Below are positions 509 to 32,083 of a stretch of 38,387 bases of DNA, piece after piece; the first letter of the stretch is position 1, and each line of letters begins with the position of its first letter. The notes beneath the pieces are model-generated. The model was not told where the DNA came from, made no database searches, and saw only the letters and a program-made list of their open reading frames with translations. Origin of the DNA: a virus; the IMG/VR virus record IMGVR_UViG_3300030060_001992, positions 1 to 38,387 of that record; one strand, written 5' to 3'. Made by a program: the position numbers and the translations under genes.

Positions 509-1591
509 ATGGCAATAATTGCGGGATGGGCTAGAGGTACATGGTCTCAAGGTACTTGGGGCGAACCTATTCCGGTTATTGTCACGGGAGAGGCAGGAAC
601 CAGTGCGGTCGGCACGGTTACTGTCCTTGCGGCAGCAGACGTTCCAGAGACAGGGCTGGCGGCTACAGGTTCCGTTGGCTCTGTTTCAGTTGTTGCTGAA
701 GCAATTATATCTCCAACTACGGTGGTGGCTACAGGTTCTGTAGGTTCCGTCACTGTTACTGGAATTGCTAATTTTAGTGTATCTGGATCGGCTGGTACGG
801 CAGCCGTTGGCTCTGTTGTAGTTTCAGCAGATGCAGATGTGCCAGAGACAGGACTTTCTGCAACAAGTGGTATTGGCTCTATAACGGTAGATGCTGGGGC
901 TGTTATAGCTGCAAGTGGCTCTGCGGGTACAGGTTCAGTTAATTCTGTCACGGCTCAAGGTAGTACGATTGCTCCTGCTACAGGACTTTCAGCTACCGCT
1001 TCGGTAGGCACGGTTGTAGCGGCGGCTGGGGCTGACGTTGATGTTACAGGACTTTCAGCTACTGGTGGATTAGATTCCGTTACGGTTACAGGTACAGGTA
1101 ATGTACCCGAAACAGGTCTTGCTGGTACGAGCGGTGTAGGATCTGTTACGATAGACGCCGCTGGTAATGTTGTCACGACAGGTGAAACGGCTACGAGTGC
1201 AGTAGGCACGGCTACAGTTGATGCTGCGGCGAATGTTGACGTTAGAACACCTTTTGATCAAATGTCAGGGGTGGTGGGAACCGTTATTGCTGGTATTTCT
1301 GTAGAGTTTGTAACAACGGGATTGGCAAGTGGCACAAATGTTGGTAATGTAACGGTACAAGCAAACGCAGATGCTATCGTAACTGGCGTTGAGGCAACAG
1401 GAGATGCAGGAAATGTTAGAGTATTTGATCAAGTTATTCCAGATCAAAAACCAAGCTTTCAGCCACCTGTGCCGGGTCTTCAGCCCGGCGATCCGTTATC
1501 AAGCCCCTCTTATAGGGAGCCTGAAGGAGTACCCGGTGGATTTGTTCCGGGGGATCGTTTACAAGCCCCAACATGGAAAGACGTAGCATAG
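509..1591 (+). CDS. Repeat-rich virion/tail protein (360 aa, ~12 repeats of ~22 residues)
   Basis: After an N-terminal segment with GWARGTW and WGEPIPV, residues ~25-305 are built from about a dozen tandem repeats of about 22 residues, consensus TGLxATxxVGSVTVxAxAxV. Each repeat alternates short beta-strands and turns, as expected for an elongated beta-solenoid or stacked beta-sandwich. The C-terminal ~45 residues are Pro/Gly-rich. The start lies in a small potential hairpin (ATCGG 495-499 with CCGAT 506-510) and has no clear Shine-Dalgarno sequence, so translation may be coupled to the gene that ends at 495. A fibre or decoration role is inferred from repeat architecture and neighbours. DNA-level repeats of 66 bp may permit copy-number change. 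Confidence 0.85.
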   Translation: MAIIAGWARGTWSQGTWGEPIPVIVTGEAGTSAVGTVTVLAAADVPETGLAATGSVGSVSVVAEAIISPTTVVATGSVGSVTVTGIANFSVSGSAGTAAVGSVVVSADADVPETGLSATSGIGSITVDAGAVIAASGSAGTGSVNSVTAQGSTIAPATGLSATASVGTVVAAAGADVDVTGLSATGGLDSVTVTGTGNVPETGLAGTSGVGSVTIDAAGNVVTTGETATSAVGTATVDAAANVDVRTPFDQMSGVVGTVIAGISVEFVTTGLASGTNVGNVTVQANADAIVTGVEATGDAGNVRVFDQVIPDQKPSFQPPVPGLQPGDPLSSPSYREPEGVPGGFVPGDRLQAPTWKDVA

Positions 1592-3840: not shown

Positions 3841-4884
3841 ATGAGTAAGGCACGAGAACTAGCTGAACTAGGTGCGGTTTACGATAGCGGTGCCTTGTCG
3901 AACAGGAATGTATTGTACAATGGCGCGATGCAGGTGGCACAGAGAGCAACTTCAGTTACAGGTATTGGCGGCAGTGATGGTTATCATGTTTGTGATAGAT
4001 GGGCCATAGGCTCTGGCACAACAGCAGGTCGTTTAACAATGACGCAAGAGGCAATTACAGACTTACCGGGTTTTTCTGTTTGTACAAAATTAGCTTGCAC
4101 AACGGCGGATACGTCTGTTGCTAGTGCCGAAACCCTTATACTTAGACAACTTCTTGCAGGAGAAGATTTATCACGGTTTGCAAAAGGTACTTCTAGTGCA
4201 AAAGAATTTACATTAAGTTTTTATGTAAAAGCAAATGCCGCCGCTACATACACTGTTGAACTTTTTGACAATGACAATTCAAGACAAATATCTAAAACTT
4301 TTTCTGTCACCACATCTTGGACAAGAGTAATTCTTACCTTTCCAGCGGATACAACTGGTGCTTTTGATAATGATATTAATATTAGTTTATATATGCAACT
4401 TTGGTTACATGCAGGAAGTCTTTTTACAAGCGGTACATTAAACTCAACATCTTGGGCATCTAATACTAATGCAAATAGAGTAAGTAGTAGTGGTACATCT
4501 TTTTTTGATAGCACAAGTCGTACTTTTTTTATTACTGGCGTCCAGTTAGAATCAGGCCCTGAAGCCACGCCCTTTGAGCATCGGTCTTATGGTGACGAGC
4601 TTGCACGGTGTCAGAGGTATTATCAAACAGACAAAGTGTATTTGCAGGCTTATCAGGTTGCGCCAAACGATTACACTACAATGTATCAATTTCCCGTTGT
4701 AATGCGAACAAATCCAACTTTGTCTTTTACAGCAACTGCGGATATTGACACAAATGTTAACACTGGAACGGCAGGACCAGTGCCAAATGCAGCTTATGGT
4801 AAGCAAGCCCGTTTTTATGTTGATCCCACTTCGACAGGTTATATTGAGTATAATAGAGCCTTTGAAGCAGATGCGGAGTTATAA
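3841..4884 (+). CDS. Tail fibre/adhesin, copy 1 of a duplicated module (347 aa)
   Basis: Residues ~20-260 (from NRNVLYNGAMQVAQRAT to ELARCQRYYQ) align closely with the product of 6814-7893, sharing blocks such as DLPGF, CTTADTS, KGTSSA, LSFYVK, NANRV, FEHR and RCQRY. This part looks like a jelly-roll, carbohydrate-binding-type domain. The last ~80 residues differ strongly from the paralogue but both end in SxGYI...DAEL, so the tip is variable and the terminus conserved. GGAG precedes the start. The gene is immediately followed by a small partner gene that is also duplicated. Host-surface binding is inferred. Confidence 0.8.
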   Translation: MSKARELAELGAVYDSGALSNRNVLYNGAMQVAQRATSVTGIGGSDGYHVCDRWAIGSGTTAGRLTMTQEAITDLPGFSVCTKLACTTADTSVASAETLILRQLLAGEDLSRFAKGTSSAKEFTLSFYVKANAAATYTVELFDNDNSRQISKTFSVTTSWTRVILTFPADTTGAFDNDINISLYMQLWLHAGSLFTSGTLNSTSWASNTNANRVSSSGTSFFDSTSRTFFITGVQLESGPEATPFEHRSYGDELARCQRYYQTDKVYLQAYQVAPNDYTTMYQFPVVMRTNPTLSFTATADIDTNVNTGTAGPVPNAAYGKQARFYVDPTSTGYIEYNRAFEADAEL

Positions 4885-5057: not shown

Positions 5058-6814
5058 TGCCATATATAGGTAATCAACCGGGAACGGGTGTAAGAAGCCG
5101 TTTTATCTATACAGCGACTGCCTCCCAGACCACGTTCTCAGGGGCGGACAACAACGGCAAAACACTGAAATATGCAGATTCAGATTTCGTTGACGTATTT
5201 TTAAATGGCGTGTGTCTCGTGCCAGTAACGGACTATGCCGCGAGTACAAAAACCAGTGTGGTTTTAACCCAAGCTGCTTCGTTAAATGACACTTTAGAAG
5301 TGGTTGCGTATGACATAGCGACAATCTCGGACACAGTTTCAAAGGCTGATGGTGGGACGTTTGAAGATGGCGTTACTATTAGAACAGCCGATAATACCGC
5401 ACAGCTTACCTTAGAATCTACTGACGCTGATGCTAGTGTTGGCCCTTTGTTCAAAATGAAAAGAAGTTCGGGAAGTGCAGCCGACAATGATGCTATTGGA
5501 GAAGTAACCTTTAATTTTAACAATGATGCTGAACAAGAAACTATTGGCACACGAATGAGAAACTTTATTATTGATGCGTCAGACGGTACGGAAGACGCAG
5601 CGTTTGATATTTTTTCTATGAAAGGCGGTAGTTTACAAAGTATTATAAATTACGACTCTAATACTTTAGTGTTTAATGATAGCAGTCAAGACATAGACTT
5701 CCGTGTTGAGTCAGATAACACAGGGTCTGCTCTTTTTGTACAGGGTTCAGATGGTAATGTTGGGTTATCAACTACAAGTCCTGCTTATCAGTTAGACCTT
5801 CAAGGTGGTACAACTAATAACGAAAGACTTAGATTACTTCGTGGAACAGATGACGCTAACCAGTTTATAACGTTAGGTTGGAATAATATTAGTGTCCATC
5901 GTGCAACCACAGCACTTGCATCTGGGATGACTAGCCTTTCATTTAATCAAGTTGGAAGTGATGGCACAAGAACCGCTGCGATGATTGACACCGCAGGTCG
6001 TTTTCTAGTTGGTAAAACTTCCTCATCTGGATCAACAGTGGGTGGAACTTTAGAAAGTGGTAGTTTATCGGTCACGACAAGTGGAGGACAGTGTGGGCGT
6101 TTTAACCGCCTATCCTCAGATGGTGATGTACTACAGTTTCGTCAAGATAATGCTGACATTGGGAGTATAGGAGTAAACGGAGATAGAGTATACTTAGCTG
6201 TTTCTGGTCATGGAGTAGCTTTAGACGCAAGTGGAAATAGTTTTTTACCTACAACTGATAGTGGAGGAAACCAAGACAACTTTGTAGATATTGGTGCATC
6301 TTCTGCTCGTTTTGATGACATCTACGCCACAAACGGCACTATCCAAACCTCTGACGAAACTGAAAAGCAAGATATTGCATCACTAACTAGTGCAGAGATT
6401 ACAGCAGCCACAGCTATCAGCAAACTATTCAAGACATACAAATGGAAAGACAAGGTAGCAGCTAAAGGTGACAATGCTAGAACACATACTGGTGTGGTTG
6501 CTCAACAAGTTCAAACTGCAATGGCAGACGCAGGGCTAGACGCAAGCAAGTATGCTTTCTGGTGTTCTGATACTTGGTGGGAAAAAGATGTTGAGGTTGC
6601 TGCTGTTGAGGCAGACGAAGAGAACGACATAGAAGCTGCTGACGCATACACTCGCACTGACCATTATTATACAAAAGACGCAGCACCAGAAGGCGCAACA
6701 GAGCGCACACGAATGGGCATAAGATACCCAGAGTTACTAGCGTTTGTTAGCGCAGCAACAGAACAAAGACTGACTAGCATTGAGGCTAGGCTAACGGCAT
6801 TGGAGGCAGAATAA
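5057..6814 (+). CDS. Tail fibre/spike with C-terminal S74 intramolecular chaperone (585 aa)
   Basis: The N-terminus MPYIGNQPG begins the fibre anchoring domain (~1-110). A long beta-rich shaft with GNVGLSTTSP and similar repeats follows. The C-terminal ~154 residues form a Peptidase_S74 (endosialidase-type) chaperone: SDETEKQDI carries the expected Ser432 and Lys437 of the self-cleaving Ser-Lys dyad, and HTGVVAQQVQ and GIRYPELLAF follow. The end is a coiled coil (EQRLTSIEARLTALEAE). In this family the domain trimerises the fibre and then cuts itself off before the Ser. The ATG overlaps the preceding stop and the stop overlaps the next ATG, so translation is coupled through the fibre cluster. 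Confidence 0.9.
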   Translation: MPYIGNQPGTGVRSRFIYTATASQTTFSGADNNGKTLKYADSDFVDVFLNGVCLVPVTDYAASTKTSVVLTQAASLNDTLEVVAYDIATISDTVSKADGGTFEDGVTIRTADNTAQLTLESTDADASVGPLFKMKRSSGSAADNDAIGEVTFNFNNDAEQETIGTRMRNFIIDASDGTEDAAFDIFSMKGGSLQSIINYDSNTLVFNDSSQDIDFRVESDNTGSALFVQGSDGNVGLSTTSPAYQLDLQGGTTNNERLRLLRGTDDANQFITLGWNNISVHRATTALASGMTSLSFNQVGSDGTRTAAMIDTAGRFLVGKTSSSGSTVGGTLESGSLSVTTSGGQCGRFNRLSSDGDVLQFRQDNADIGSIGVNGDRVYLAVSGHGVALDASGNSFLPTTDSGGNQDNFVDIGASSARFDDIYATNGTIQTSDETEKQDIASLTSAEITAATAISKLFKTYKWKDKVAAKGDNARTHTGVVAQQVQTAMADAGLDASKYAFWCSDTWWEKDVEVAAVEADEENDIEAADAYTRTDHYYTKDAAPEGATERTRMGIRYPELLAFVSAATEQRLTSIEARLTALEAE

Positions 6815-7893
6815 TGGCAGTATCAAGAATCAACGAAGCTGGCCTCAACGTTAACCAGTATGGGAACAGGAACCTTATTATCAATGGTGCTGCTCAAGTC
6901 GCTCAAAGAGGGACATCAAGCACGGGTTTAGGTGGTGCTTCTGGGTATTTTACTGTTGATAGGTGGAGAATTGCTGGTAATGCGTCTAGTGGTAGACTTA
7001 CTATGTCTCAATCCGCAGTAACTGATTTGCCGGGCTTTGCAAACTGCGTTAAATTTGCCTGTACAACTGCTGATACCTCTTTAGGTTCTTCAGATTTTAC
7101 ATCTTTTAATTATAAAATAGAAGGTCAAGATTTACAGAGATTTAAAAAAGGAACCTCCAGTGCAGAAAAAATGACTTTGTCTTTCTATGTCAAAGGAAAT
7201 GCTGCGGCTACACATGTAGTTGAGTTATACGATGCTGATAATGCTAGACAAATATCTCAGGCTTTTTCAGTAACGGATAGTTGGAGTAGAGTTATTTTAG
7301 TCTATGATGGAGATACAACAGGGGCTTTTGATGACGATGCTAACCAAAGTCTAAATATAAATCTTTATTTAGCTGCTGGTACAGATTTCACCAGTGGTAC
7401 ATTATCTACATCATGGGGTTCTGTAACAAATGCAAATAGAGTAGTGGGTAACACTAACTTTTATGATAGCACTAGCAGAACGCTTGAATTTACAGGCCTT
7501 CAATTAGAAGTAGGCGACACCGCCACGGACTTTGAGCATCGAACCTTTGGGGATGAGTTGGTTAGGTGTCAGAGGTATTTTAATCGAATAGGAAAAGATG
7601 ACGGTAGTAACACACATTTGCTAGTCGGGGGTGTTGAGGCATCAAACACACTTATTATGTCAAGAGCCTGTCCTGTTAGTATGAGAGCGGTTCCCACTTG
7701 TACAATGGGAAGTGGGGTCAGGGGGTTTTCTTCTTCGGTAGGGGTAAGTACAATATCTAGTTTTTCTAGCCGTAACACTAGAGATATTATTTGTCTTAGT
7801 GTTGTTGTTAGTGGTTCTCATACTTTAGGACAAGCCGCAGTTTTATTCGATTCCACTTCCAATGGTTATATAGATTCAGATGCGGAGTTATAA
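6814..7893 (+). CDS. Tail fibre/adhesin, copy 2 of a duplicated module (359 aa)
   Basis: This is a paralogue of the product of 3841-4884. The N-terminal ~250 residues (NRNLIINGAAQVAQRGT through ELVRCQRYFN) align almost without gaps, whereas the C-terminal ~100 residues do not, until both end in a SxGYIxxDAEL-like terminus. This fits a conserved carbohydrate-binding-type body with exchanged receptor tips. The start overlaps the S74 fibre stop (TAATG). It is followed 2 bases later by the second copy of the small partner gene. Confidence 0.8.
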   Translation: MAVSRINEAGLNVNQYGNRNLIINGAAQVAQRGTSSTGLGGASGYFTVDRWRIAGNASSGRLTMSQSAVTDLPGFANCVKFACTTADTSLGSSDFTSFNYKIEGQDLQRFKKGTSSAEKMTLSFYVKGNAAATHVVELYDADNARQISQAFSVTDSWSRVILVYDGDTTGAFDDDANQSLNINLYLAAGTDFTSGTLSTSWGSVTNANRVVGNTNFYDSTSRTLEFTGLQLEVGDTATDFEHRTFGDELVRCQRYFNRIGKDDGSNTHLLVGGVEASNTLIMSRACPVSMRAVPTCTMGSGVRGFSSSVGVSTISSFSSRNTRDIICLSVVVSGSHTLGQAAVLFDSTSNGYIDSDAEL

Positions 7894-24161: not shown

Positions 24162-24307
24162 AAGACGTAAAGACTCGATGGGCAGTATATGATGATGGAC
24201 TTAAAATTTGGTATAACGGAAAGCTTATAGCTGAGATAGATCCAGATGAGTTTCCATATCTATTATCTGATTTAGCAGTTTATATGAAAAAGAAATTTAA
24301 AAAATGA
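24158..24307 (+). CDS. Small hypothetical protein (49 aa)
   Basis: ATG 24158 overlaps the helicase stop (ATGA) and follows GAGAGG, so it is preferred to the in-frame ATG at 24116 inside the helicase gene. The product is short, with aromatic residues (RWAVYDDGLKIWYNGK) and a basic end (MKKKFKK). It overlaps the next gene by 4 bases. No family recognised. It sits in the translationally coupled replication run. Confidence 0.65.
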   Translation: MKDVKTRWAVYDDGLKIWYNGKLIAEIDPDEFPYLLSDLAVYMKKKFKK

Positions 24308-24765
24308 GTGCAGGTTTAACACCCGTTCCAATTAGTCTTCGTGAAGCTCGTGAGTTTGTTGGAAACTTTCACCGTCACAACAAACCACCACAGGGCGGAA
24401 AGTTTGCCATAGGTGCTTCATTTGAAGATGAGTTAATTGGTGTTGCTATTGTAGGTAACCCAGTAGCTAGGCGCATGATGGATGGATTTACGGCGGAAGT
24501 AGTAAGGGTATGTGTGCAGGACGATGCACCAAAGAATGCCTGTTCTTTTTTATACGGAAGGTGTTGGCGGATCTGGCAACAAATGGGAGGTAAACGAATG
24601 ATAACGTATACTCTGCAATCGGAAGCTGGTTCGAGTCTTAAAGGTGCAGGATGGAAAATGGTTGGAGAGGTAAAACTTAATTCCAAAGGATGGCAGAACC
24701 GTCCGGGGAGAAAATGGCAACCAATATATGGGCAACTAAAATTTAAATGGGAAACAACAAAATGA
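24304..24765 (+). CDS. XF1762-family, GNAT-like protein (153 aa)
   Basis: PISLREAREFVGNFHRHNKPP at the N-terminus, followed by FAIGASFEDELIGVAIVG (in blocks), EVVRVCV, NACSFLYG and ITYTLQSEAGSSLKGAGWK, is the pattern I know as the XF1762 family. Its core strands and the ACSFLYGRCWR helix resemble a GNAT acetyltransferase fold. The substrate is unknown. Such genes are common among phage replication genes. Start and stop overlap neighbouring genes by 4 bases each. Confidence 0.8.
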   Translation: MSAGLTPVPISLREAREFVGNFHRHNKPPQGGKFAIGASFEDELIGVAIVGNPVARRMMDGFTAEVVRVCVQDDAPKNACSFLYGRCWRIWQQMGGKRMITYTLQSEAGSSLKGAGWKMVGEVKLNSKGWQNRPGRKWQPIYGQLKFKWETTK

Positions 24766-30664: not shown

Positions 30665-30873
30665 CCCCAGTCCTTTCTGTCTTCCTCATTGAGCCATCCT
30701 TCCATGTAGGATTCGATTTCACTCTCAGTCATGTTGCTCTCAGTCACAACACTCCTACCAATATTGTCCAACCAAATGTGTGGCTCTGGCTGCCGACCAT
30801 AATATCGATCAGCAGAGCCGCGATCTGCGGCTCTCCCTTCACGATCCATCACCCATGATTTCACTTTACCCAT
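30661..30873 (-). CDS. Small hypothetical protein (70 aa)
   Basis: GGAGGT lies 6 bases before the ATG, which is itself within the last codons of the methyltransferase frame. The sequence has a basic first half (MDREGRAADRGSADRYYGRQ) and an acidic helical second half (ESEIESYMEGWLNEEDRKDWG in parts). No recognised family. Direct overlap with the methyltransferase suggests co-translation and possibly a linked role. Confidence 0.65.
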   Translation of the reverse strand: MGKVKSWVMDREGRAADRGSADRYYGRQPEPHIWLDNIGRSVVTESNMTESEIESYMEGWLNEEDRKDWG

Positions 30874-32083
30874 TTTTTACCTCCATGTAACTTTCAATTA
30901 ACCCTTGCGCGACTTGCGCCGTGATGGCGTTTCCGTAGGCGCGGAGCCGTCCCACTCTGGCGGTAGCCCCATGAGCCAACGGGAATGTGCTGGGTTCAAC
31001 TGGCCTCCACTTTCCATCTCGGCAGAGGAGCCAGTCAGTATCTCGCCAGAAACCGTTAGTCTCATTGGCTCTGGTTTGGGCTTCACTTCTCCTTTCGCCT
31101 CCATTACAGCCTCTATCATGTCGGGTGATACTTGCTCCCTCAGATTGCATGGAAACGATCTGTTCTTTCTCGTTGTCTGATGCATCCTGATCATGGCCTC
31201 CTTGCTCCGTAATGGAAGACTGTCCATCGTGTTCGGTGTCGCCCATCCCGACATTTGACTCTGTTCGGGTAGATTGTGACCCCGACTTTTCCATTCCTTG
31301 ACCGACTCTGGCTTTGCCGCTCCCTTGTGATCCGCCGTTGTCGGGGTTGACCATCCGGCTAGTTGGGCTTGCGCCCCCGTGTTCCAACCGTGCTTCCCGT
31401 TCAGATGTGACGGAGCTATGTTCGTTCCGCCCGTCATCGATGTCGGGGTCGCCCATCCCGATAGTTGAGCCGCTACGTCCAGAGTGTCCGTGCTTATCTT
31501 GCCATTTCGAATCCGTCCGCCCTGATATCCGCCCTTGTGATCTCGGGTTGTCGGTGTCGGCCACGAACCAAAGTCTTTGCCTGATGTGCGGAGCGCCGAA
31601 GCCCGCAGAGCAGAGATCGAAAGCCCCGATGGCGTAGTCCGCTCCTTCCATGTCAGCTTGTACAAGGTCGATCCAACCGAGGCCGTCTTTTGACGCAACT
31701 TGTTCTCCAAAGACCGTTGAAGGTCGGCACTGTTCGATGAGGTGGAACCAGTGAGGCCAGAGGTGCCGCTCGTCAGTAACCCCTTTTCGGCTACCAGCGT
31801 TGCTGAAAGGCTGGCACGGACAAGATCCTGTCCAGACTGGTCGGTCATCTTCCCATCCGGCTGATCGGAGTGCGTAACTCCAGACACCAATTCCGGCGAA
31901 GAAGTGACATTGAGTAAATTCTTGAAGTTCATCTGGTCGGACATCTGATATGCTCCTTTCGTCCACTATACCATTTGCGATATGCCCAGACCGAATTAAC
32001 GATCTGAGCCATTCTGCGGCGTATGGGTCAATCTCATTATAGTATGCCCATTTCTGTCCGCCTATAGATTTATGCGTCACCAA
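30866..32083 (-). CDS. DNA cytosine-C5 methyltransferase (405 aa)
   Basis: [14 protein letters not shown] (SAM-binding motif I, ~59-72), GSCPCQPFS (motif IV with the catalytic Cys, ~86-94), FGEQVAS (motif VI, ~126), [13 protein letters not shown] (motif VIII, ~164-176) and [14 protein letters not shown] (motif X, ~380) give a complete enzyme. A low-complexity middle (~180-330, with repeats such as GMGDPD, MVNPD, GMGDTE) lies where the target-recognition region is expected. The start is TTG 32083 or GTG 32080, neither with a strong Shine-Dalgarno, overlapping the upstream stop. No cognate restriction nuclease is seen, so protection of phage DNA from host restriction is likely. Local GC is higher than in flanking genes. 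Confidence 0.9.
30898..31944 (-). CDS. Nested reading frame inside the methyltransferase gene (348 aa)
   Basis: This frame lies wholly within the methyltransferase gene on the same strand but shifted. Its ATG follows AAAGGAG (31953-31959) with an ideal 8-base gap. The protein is not random: [17 protein letters not shown], repeated [27 protein letters not shown] motifs, and [16 protein letters not shown] near the end. The GWPTPTxxD and LNPxxxxWLMGxPxxW patterns also occur, to my recollection, in the recognition part of other cytosine methyltransferases and in separately annotated phage proteins. A target-recognition-like partner translated from an internal start is therefore credible. A conserved-looking shadow of the host gene cannot be excluded without codon analysis. 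Confidence 0.55.

What the first reader, a model, noticed from the sequence alone, without database searches (positions are those of the whole stretch)
30898..31944. A second 348-codon gene nested out of frame inside the cytosine methyltransferase gene
Seen: a fully open frame on the same strand, shifted relative to the methyltransferase, with AAAGGAG exactly 8 bases before its ATG. Its protein has organised repeats ([18 protein letters not shown]) and an LNPxxxRWLMGxPxEW ending. Known: those patterns occur, to my recollection, in the recognition regions of other cytosine methyltransferases. Inference: one DNA segment may encode the enzyme's variable region and a separate recognition-like partner. 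The methyltransferase's odd low-complexity middle may be the price of this dual coding.
Basis: partly seen in the sequence, partly recalled or inferred. Interest (0 to 1): 0.8.

Follow-up and report, generated by a model that had tools for sequence, protein, structure and literature searches.

The report
DNA methyltransferase split across reading frames
This phage stretch encodes two overlapping proteins in different reading frames, a DNA methyltransferase's catalytic part and, nested inside it, what looks like its missing sequence-recognition half built from exchangeable cassettes; the nested gene is conserved in hundreds of phages but seldom annotated as a gene of its own.

Summary
A 348-codon frame (30898-31944, minus) lies wholly inside the cytosine-5 methyltransferase gene (30866-32083), shifted +1, with AAAGGAG 8 bases before its ATG. 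It is not chance. In all 273 loci where both proteins could be placed, the nested frame overlaps the methyltransferase in the same +1 register. Its stop lies near the methyltransferase stop in 252 of 260 loci. Between motifs VIII and X the nested frame is the constrained one (amino-acid identity about 0.85 against 0.58 for the methyltransferase frame), so the enzyme's 'odd middle' is mostly a passenger. The nested protein belongs to phrog_1008. Mycobacterium and Arthrobacter phages carry that family as a partly overlapping second gene with motifs IX and X, and some carry it fused in frame with the catalytic domain. Best explanation: the two frames encode the two subunits of one C5-methyltransferase. 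The methyltransferase frame gives motifs I-VIII and X; the nested frame gives a target-recognition array and motif IX. The array has 1-6 cassettes (113 types, 121 combinations in 254 loci), shuffled between phages. Two-polypeptide C5-methyltransferases are known (M.AquI, M.EcoHK31I), so this is a new variant. Assembly, activity and specificity are inferred, not shown.

The parts
30866..32083 (-). Alpha: C5-cytosine methyltransferase frame, 405 aa, TTG start. Catalytic motifs (I, IV, VI, VIII) and motif X; lacks an ordered recognition region
   Evidence: Pfam PF00145 1.4e-10; phrog_363 1.1e-84; profile matches M.HhaI residues 3-172; AF2 confident for about 13-180 and 389-404, pLDDT<50 for most of 184-380
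30898..31944 (-). Beta: nested ORF in the +1 frame, 348 aa, ATG start. Proposed target-recognition array plus motif IX
   Evidence: phrog_31772 6e-38, phrog_1008 6e-31; 217 phage records; codon-position constraint
31953..31959 (-). Shine-Dalgarno-like AAAGGAG, 8 bases before the nested ATG
   Evidence: sequence; AGG codon 37/70 representatives vs 8% elsewhere, p=2.5e-22 uncorrected for phylogeny
31946..32044 (-). Methyltransferase residues 14-46, not overlapped by the nested gene; resemble motifs II-III placed before motif I (permuted order)
   Evidence: HMM alignment to M.HhaI has a gap where motifs II-III lie; AF2 strand 13-16, helix 20-31, strand 38-41 precede the motif I strand 58-62; assignment is inference
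31886..31909 (-). Methyltransferase motif I (CHFFAGIG)
   Evidence: sequence; alignment
31802..31828 (-). Methyltransferase motif IV (GSCPCQPFS, catalytic Cys)
   Evidence: invariant P89 C90 Q91 P92 S94
31697..31708 (-). Methyltransferase motif VI (GEQV)
   Evidence: invariant or nearly invariant
31565..31582 (-). Methyltransferase motif VIII (RQRLWF)
   Evidence: invariant R168, R170
31055..31534 (-). Methyltransferase 'low-complexity middle' (residues 184-343): relaxed frame over the cassette array
   Evidence: MT codon pos1/2/3 divergence .443/.286/.238; MT aa identity 0.58 vs nested 0.85
30923..30949 (-). Methyltransferase motif X (RLRAYGNAI)
   Evidence: nearly invariant G384 N385 A386; weak profile match to motif X of actinophage beta
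31585..31734 (-). Nested residues 71-120: conserved helix plus beta-hairpin ([16 protein letters not shown]...RASALRTSG)
   Evidence: AF2 pLDDT 80-90 here; nearly invariant T98 W99 K100 T104 P105
31456..31563 (-). Recognition cassette 1 ([36 protein letters not shown])
   Evidence: module clustering; close match in N15
31354..31455 (-). Recognition cassette 2 ([12 protein letters not shown]...QAQLAG)
31246..31353 (-). Recognition cassette 3 ([11 protein letters not shown]...QSQMSG)
31063..31245 (-). Recognition cassette 4 ([12 protein letters not shown]...PEPM)
   Evidence: shared at 88% nt identity by L018 and L036
30952..30999 (-). Motif IX-like [16 protein letters not shown] in the nested frame
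   Evidence: nearly invariant L316 P318 R322 W323 L324 M325 G326; equivalent segment in frame with motif X in actinophage beta and in single-chain enzymes

Best explanation
The locus encodes one C5-cytosine DNA methyltransferase as two polypeptides read from the same DNA in two frames. The 405-aa alpha chain carries cofactor binding and catalysis (motifs I, IV, VI, VIII, with II-III at its N-terminus) and motif X. The nested 348-aa beta chain is translated from its own ATG and ribosome-binding site, and carries a target-recognition array of four cassettes plus motif IX. The chains assemble into an active enzyme. Each cassette probably reads one short DNA target, so a multi-cassette beta chain would protect phage DNA at several sites against host restriction. 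Shown: two conserved frames, constraint on the nested frame, family identity with C-terminal halves of single-chain enzymes and with split second subunits, and cassette shuffling. Inferred: translation, assembly, activity, and recognition by the cassettes.
For: (a) Coding: codon-position divergence shows methyltransferase-like constraint in the non-overlapping ends, constraint on both frames at motifs IV-VIII and X, and nested-frame constraint in the middle, in four sets of loci. Module-region identity is 0.85 nested vs 0.58 MT in the window-like set and similar in two others. Stop avoidance holds in both directions. Start and Shine-Dalgarno codons are biased. (b) Identity: phrog_1008 matches the window protein, actinophage second genes (3e-96), the nested gene of Paenibacillus phage Tadhana (2e-74) and the C-terminal half of single-chain ShiLan gp70 (2e-61). 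Actinophage beta versus single-chain enzymes: probability 100%, E 2e-42, through motifs IX and X. In Romney, Priamo, Dylan and Lymara alpha stops after motif VIII and beta carries cassettes, IX and X. (c) The alpha model has no ordered recognition region, and the nested cassettes sit exactly between VIII and IX. (d) Cassettes: 113 types, 121 architectures in 254 loci, 26 of 36 common types at more than one position. (e) Split C5-methyltransferases are known: M.AquI and M.EcoHK31I (PMC3404938).
Against: No expression, interaction or methylation data. The AF2 model of the nested chain alone is poor (pLDDT 57, pTM 0.29) and finds no fold relative, so the recognition fold is not shown. The direct profile link from the nested family to actinophage beta covers the cassettes, not motif IX; the motif IX link rests on the shared phrog_1008 profile and on motif similarity. 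About a quarter of representatives lack the start at the aligned position, so initiation differs there.
Confidence: 0.8

Rival explanations
1. Chance open frame, or a frame kept open only as a by-product of methyltransferase conservation.
For: The nested N-terminal third overlaps strongly conserved catalytic motifs, so part of its conservation is forced by the other frame (MT pos3/pos1 ratio 3.4-4.5 there).
Against: In the middle the nested frame is the constrained one. 0 stops vs about 284 expected in 72 genes. Start and Shine-Dalgarno codon bias. The protein family is found in frame in single-chain enzymes.
Confidence: 0.01
2. The nested protein is real but is not a subunit: for example a regulator, an inhibitor, or a DNA-binding protein acting separately from the methyltransferase.
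For: No interaction data; no Pfam or PDB match.
Against: Actinophage orthologues carry motif X together with motif IX while their partner lacks it; fused versions exist; the family was never found without an overlapping methyltransferase.
Confidence: 0.12
3. The two frames are joined by programmed frameshifting into one chain (catalytic part, then shift +1 into the cassettes, possibly back for motif X).
For: Some representatives lack the start codon or Shine-Dalgarno at the aligned position. Single-frame fusions arise by indels (L069; ShiLan).
Against: In most, the ATG and Shine-Dalgarno are conserved beyond the amino-acid requirement. The first 120 nested codons, which a frameshift product would not use, avoid stops (0 vs 135 expected; ORFs were chosen as open). 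Motif X would need a second shift.
Confidence: 0.05
4. An out-of-frame homing endonuclease insertion, as in the ShiLan domain of a mycobacteriophage methylase.
For: A published precedent of a hidden out-of-frame gene in a phage methylase (PMC11855218).
Against: No HNH or other nuclease family match. The nested gene covers most of the methyltransferase rather than an insertion, and is always present in this family.
Confidence: 0.01

Closest known systems
M.EcoHK31I (two-polypeptide C5-methyltransferase)
   Same: The large chain has motifs I-VIII and X; motif IX is on a separate small chain (PMC3404938). To my recollection the small chain's gene overlaps the large one in another frame, but the primary paper is not held.
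   Different: Its recognition domain is described as lying in the large chain; here the array is in the nested chain and modular. Sequence homology could not be tested.
M.AquI alpha/beta
   Same: Catalytic motifs I-VIII on one chain; distal variable region with IX-X on the other (PMC3404938). This matches the actinophage forms.
   Different: In the window beta lies entirely within alpha and motif X is in alpha.
BsuMI modification subunits YdiO/YdiP
   Same: The nested ORF of Paenibacillus phage HB10c2 is annotated as YdiP-like.
   Different: To my knowledge two adjacent genes, not nested; not compared here.
Multispecific phage C5-methyltransferases (SPbeta, phi3T, rho11, SPR)
   Same: To my knowledge these have several exchangeable recognition domains between motifs VIII and IX.
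   Different: There the domains are in one chain and one frame; here they are in a separate, nested chain. Cassette homology not tested.
PHROG families phrog_363 (alpha) and phrog_1008/phrog_31772 (beta)
   Same: Both frames match these phage families.
   Different: All are labelled only 'DNA methyltransferase'; the overlap and division of labour are not described there.

Membership tests
C5-cytosine DNA methyltransferase (PF00145), alpha chain | Motifs I, IV (PCQ), VI, VIII and X | tested here: met
   Pfam 1.4e-10; invariant PCQPFS, GE[NQ]V, RxR, GNA[IV]; M.HhaI match 6.5e-20
C5-cytosine DNA methyltransferase (PF00145), alpha chain | Canonical motif order I-II-III-IV | tested here: not met
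   II-III-like segment lies before motif I; gap of 36 residues against M.HhaI. Relatives such as Tadhana have canonical order
C5-cytosine DNA methyltransferase (PF00145), alpha chain | Ordered target-recognition domain and motif IX between VIII and X in the same chain | tested here: not met
   Residues 184-380 mostly pLDDT<50 and the frame is relaxed
Two-polypeptide C5-methyltransferase (M.AquI / M.EcoHK31I type) | Conserved motifs divided between two separately encoded chains | tested here: met
   I-VIII and X in alpha, IX in beta; family links
Two-polypeptide C5-methyltransferase (M.AquI / M.EcoHK31I type) | Both chains needed for methylation | not testable with these tools
   needs co-expression and a methylation assay
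Multispecific C5-methyltransferase (SPbeta group) | Tandem exchangeable units in the variable region | tested here: met
   1-6 cassettes, 113 types, 121 architectures
Multispecific C5-methyltransferase (SPbeta group) | Recognition units in the same polypeptide as the catalytic motifs | tested here: not met
   cassettes are in the +1 frame; in frame only in ShiLan, Hamulus and Babsiella relatives
Multispecific C5-methyltransferase (SPbeta group) | Several DNA target sequences methylated | not testable with these tools
   needs methylome data
Out-of-frame HNH homing insertion (ShiLan domain) | HNH nuclease motif in the alternate frame | tested here: not met
   no Pfam or NCBIfam nuclease match

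The most novel reading that the evidence does not exclude
A widespread phage class of multispecific cytosine methyltransferases in which specificity cassettes are encoded and shuffled in a different reading frame from the catalytic chain. Every cassette swap must therefore also keep the catalytic frame open. This would be dual coding combined with modular recombination at scale.
Probability: 0.55. Interest if true: 0.82.

Novelty: new variant of a known kind. Interest (0 to 1): 0.7.

Why it matters
If right, many phage and prophage 'DNA cytosine methyltransferase' genes are annotated as half an enzyme. The half that decides which DNA sequence is modified sits unannotated in the other frame; the plasmid records matched by the nested protein list only the methyltransferase or other features there. 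Cloning only the annotated ORF still includes the nested gene, but codon-optimised synthesis would destroy it and give dead enzymes. The system is a strong natural case of long same-strand dual coding with constraint traded between frames along the gene. It also offers a cassette code for methylation specificity that can be read from sequence and tested.

Tried and rejected
Chance or by-product ORF: rejected. HNH homing insertion: rejected for lack of any nuclease match after reading PMC11855218. Standalone homologues of the nested protein: none found among 273 phage, viral and genome loci or in a 300-genome order search; even the weakest hit, L295, overlaps a methyltransferase in +1. PDB profile search with the nested family: no hit at E 1. 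AF2 of the nested chain: low confidence, fold search meaningless. Literature searches for an overlapping or nested methyltransferase gene in phages found only the ShiLan-domain paper and the split-enzyme background; subscription papers are not held, and the M.EcoHK31I paper could not be read.

Full report
What is there. On the minus strand, ORF 30866-32083 (405 aa, TTG start) is a C5-cytosine methyltransferase. ORF 30898-31944 (348 aa, ATG) lies wholly inside it, shifted +1. AAAGGAG stands 8 bases before the nested ATG. The window is an IMG/VR virus record of 38,387 bases. Pfam sees PF00145 in the outer frame and nothing above cut-off in the nested frame. PHROGs places the outer frame in phrog_363 (1e-84) and the nested frame in phrog_31772 (6e-38) and phrog_1008 (6e-31), both labelled 'DNA methyltransferase'.

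Both frames are conserved together. tblastn finds the nested protein in 217 phage records and the outer one in 402. IMG/VR gives 597 confirmed relatives of the nested protein. I collected 276 loci, including epsilon15, BcepC6B, N15, K1ind1, Klebsiella LASTA, Rhodobacter RcMrWorf and Paenibacillus Tadhana. In all 273 where both could be placed, the nested frame overlaps the methyltransferase at offset +1; none had the nested protein alone. Within a 300-genome order-level search, 8 genomes matched, and the nested match lies in the +1 frame of a methyltransferase in those inspected. The nested stop lies within 40 codons of the methyltransferase stop in 252 of 260 loci.

Is it selected? Nested codon position 2 coincides with methyltransferase (MT) position 3, so ordinary MT evolution should wreck the nested protein. 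In 1,585 pairs of window-like loci, divergence at MT positions 1/2/3 is .122/.081/.516 in the non-overlapping N-terminus.189/.041/.171 at residues 111-190.443/.286/.238 in the middle (191-340) and .192/.131/.179 at residues 341-394. The non-overlapping last codons return to a high third-position rate (.510). The pattern repeats in four sets, which share a few loci (middle p3/p1 0.43-0.68; non-overlap N-terminus 2.6-7.5). In the cassette region amino-acid identity is 0.85 for the nested frame and 0.58 for the MT frame in window-like pairs, with nested codon positions diverging .136/.092/.367, a normal coding profile for the nested frame (that alignment was made on nested proteins, while searches used MT alignments and agree). 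Synonymous shuffles of MT codons predict about 135 stops in the first 120 nested codons and 150 later over 72 representatives; 0 are seen. Conversely, shuffles of nested codons predict 370 stops in the MT frame over the middle; 0 are seen. ORFs were picked as open, so these zeros are partly by construction. Three of 77 representatives do have a short nested frame: L113 by a single stop, L069 and L091 by rearrangement or frameshift.

Translation start. The nested ATG is at the same place in 55 of 77 representatives. A Shine-Dalgarno core is present in 47 of the 59 with a start within 3 codons. The overlapping Arg codon is AGG in 37 of 70 against 8% elsewhere, and the overlapping Asp codon is GAT in 57 of 70 against 39% (p-values ignore relatedness). 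So initiation at the nested ATG is favoured by selection, in most but not all lineages.

What the nested protein is. In actinophages Romney, Priamo, Dylan and Lymara the catalytic gene stops after motif VIII, and a second gene in the +1 frame carries a linker, LLPTPxxxD cassettes, the segment RLNAAFSEWMMGW (motif IX-like) and IIGNGVVxQQA (motif X). In ShiLan gp70, Hamulus gp68 and Babsiella gp54 all of this is one chain in one frame. The second genes match the single-chain enzymes with probability 100% and E 2e-42 through IX and X. phrog_1008 covers the actinophage second genes (3e-96), the Tadhana nested gene (2e-74), the C-terminal half of ShiLan gp70 (2e-61) and the window nested protein. 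The window family aligns directly with the actinophage second genes over the cassettes (probability 95%, E 3e-8). Its ending [16 protein letters not shown] is the same motif IX-like segment, while motif X (RLRAYGNAI) stayed in the outer frame (weak profile match). The nested protein is therefore most simply the recognition half of the same enzyme.

Cassettes. The nested proteins contain 1-6 units of about 25-60 residues starting W-x-T-P. Among 774 units in 254 loci there are 113 types and 121 orders of types. 26 of 36 common types occur at more than one ordinal position and 24 have three or more neighbour contexts. Fourteen locus pairs with catalytic cores under 65% identical share a unit of 80% or more. 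N15 carries [21 protein letters not shown], nearly the window's first cassette. This is the behaviour expected of exchangeable recognition units. That each reads one DNA target is inference.

Structure. AF2 gives a confident catalytic core for the outer chain, a disordered stretch for most of 184-380 and a confident C-terminal helix; fold search returns M.HhaI and M.HaeIII. The nested chain alone is poorly predicted except residues 71-120, a helix and hairpin, and has no fold match, as would be expected of a subunit that needs its partner.

Known or new. M.AquI and M.EcoHK31I are natural two-polypeptide C5-methyltransferases; in M.EcoHK31I the large chain holds I-VIII and X and the small chain holds IX (PMC3404938), the same division as here. 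From memory the M.EcoHK31I chains also overlap in different frames; the paper could not be read, and if so the dual-frame principle has an old precedent. Some annotators already list both ORFs (K1ind1, K1ind2, Tadhana, PhiXhv-28), and one labels a nested ORF YdiP-like, but I found no paper that explains them. What appears new is the breadth, the mapped trade of constraint between frames, and the shuffled cassette array in the alternate frame. I file it as a new variant of a known kind. Confidence that the nested ORF is a real gene is about 0.97; that it is the enzyme's recognition subunit, about 0.8; that cassettes are separate specificities, about 0.55.

Noticed in passing
window 31946-32044 (-): The methyltransferase appears permuted: the motif II-III-like segment ([14 protein letters not shown]...VDERSI) precedes motif I, and the profile skips 36 residues of M.HhaI between I and IV. 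Tadhana and actinophage relatives have the canonical order.
   Followed up: partly
window 24304-24765 (+): A Mom-family protein (PF25680, 1.8e-7), another DNA-modification gene of anti-restriction type in the same phage.
   Followed up: no
L085:3056-3439 (Erythrobacter phage vB_EliS_R6L gp55): The ORF annotated 'cytosine-specific methyltransferase' has the register of the tblastn nested match, not of the catalytic frame; the catalytic frame is not annotated.
   Followed up: partly
L069:1283-2464: An indel joins the catalytic frame to the nested frame in the cassette region, giving a one-frame fusion that ends in motif IX without motif X; shows how fused forms may arise (or a sequencing error).
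   Followed up: partly
L279:1341-1844 (Mycobacterium phage Babsiella): The single-chain enzyme still has an overlapping +1 ORF with three further cassettes (annotated part: gp55), so cassettes sit in both frames of one gene.
   Followed up: no
window 3841-4884 and 6814-7893 (+): Two similar proteins (NGAxQVAQRxTSxTGxGG...) look like a duplicated structural or tail gene.
   Followed up: no
window 509-1591 (+): A 360-aa protein made of imperfect repeats (VPETGLxATGSVGSVTV...).
   Followed up: no
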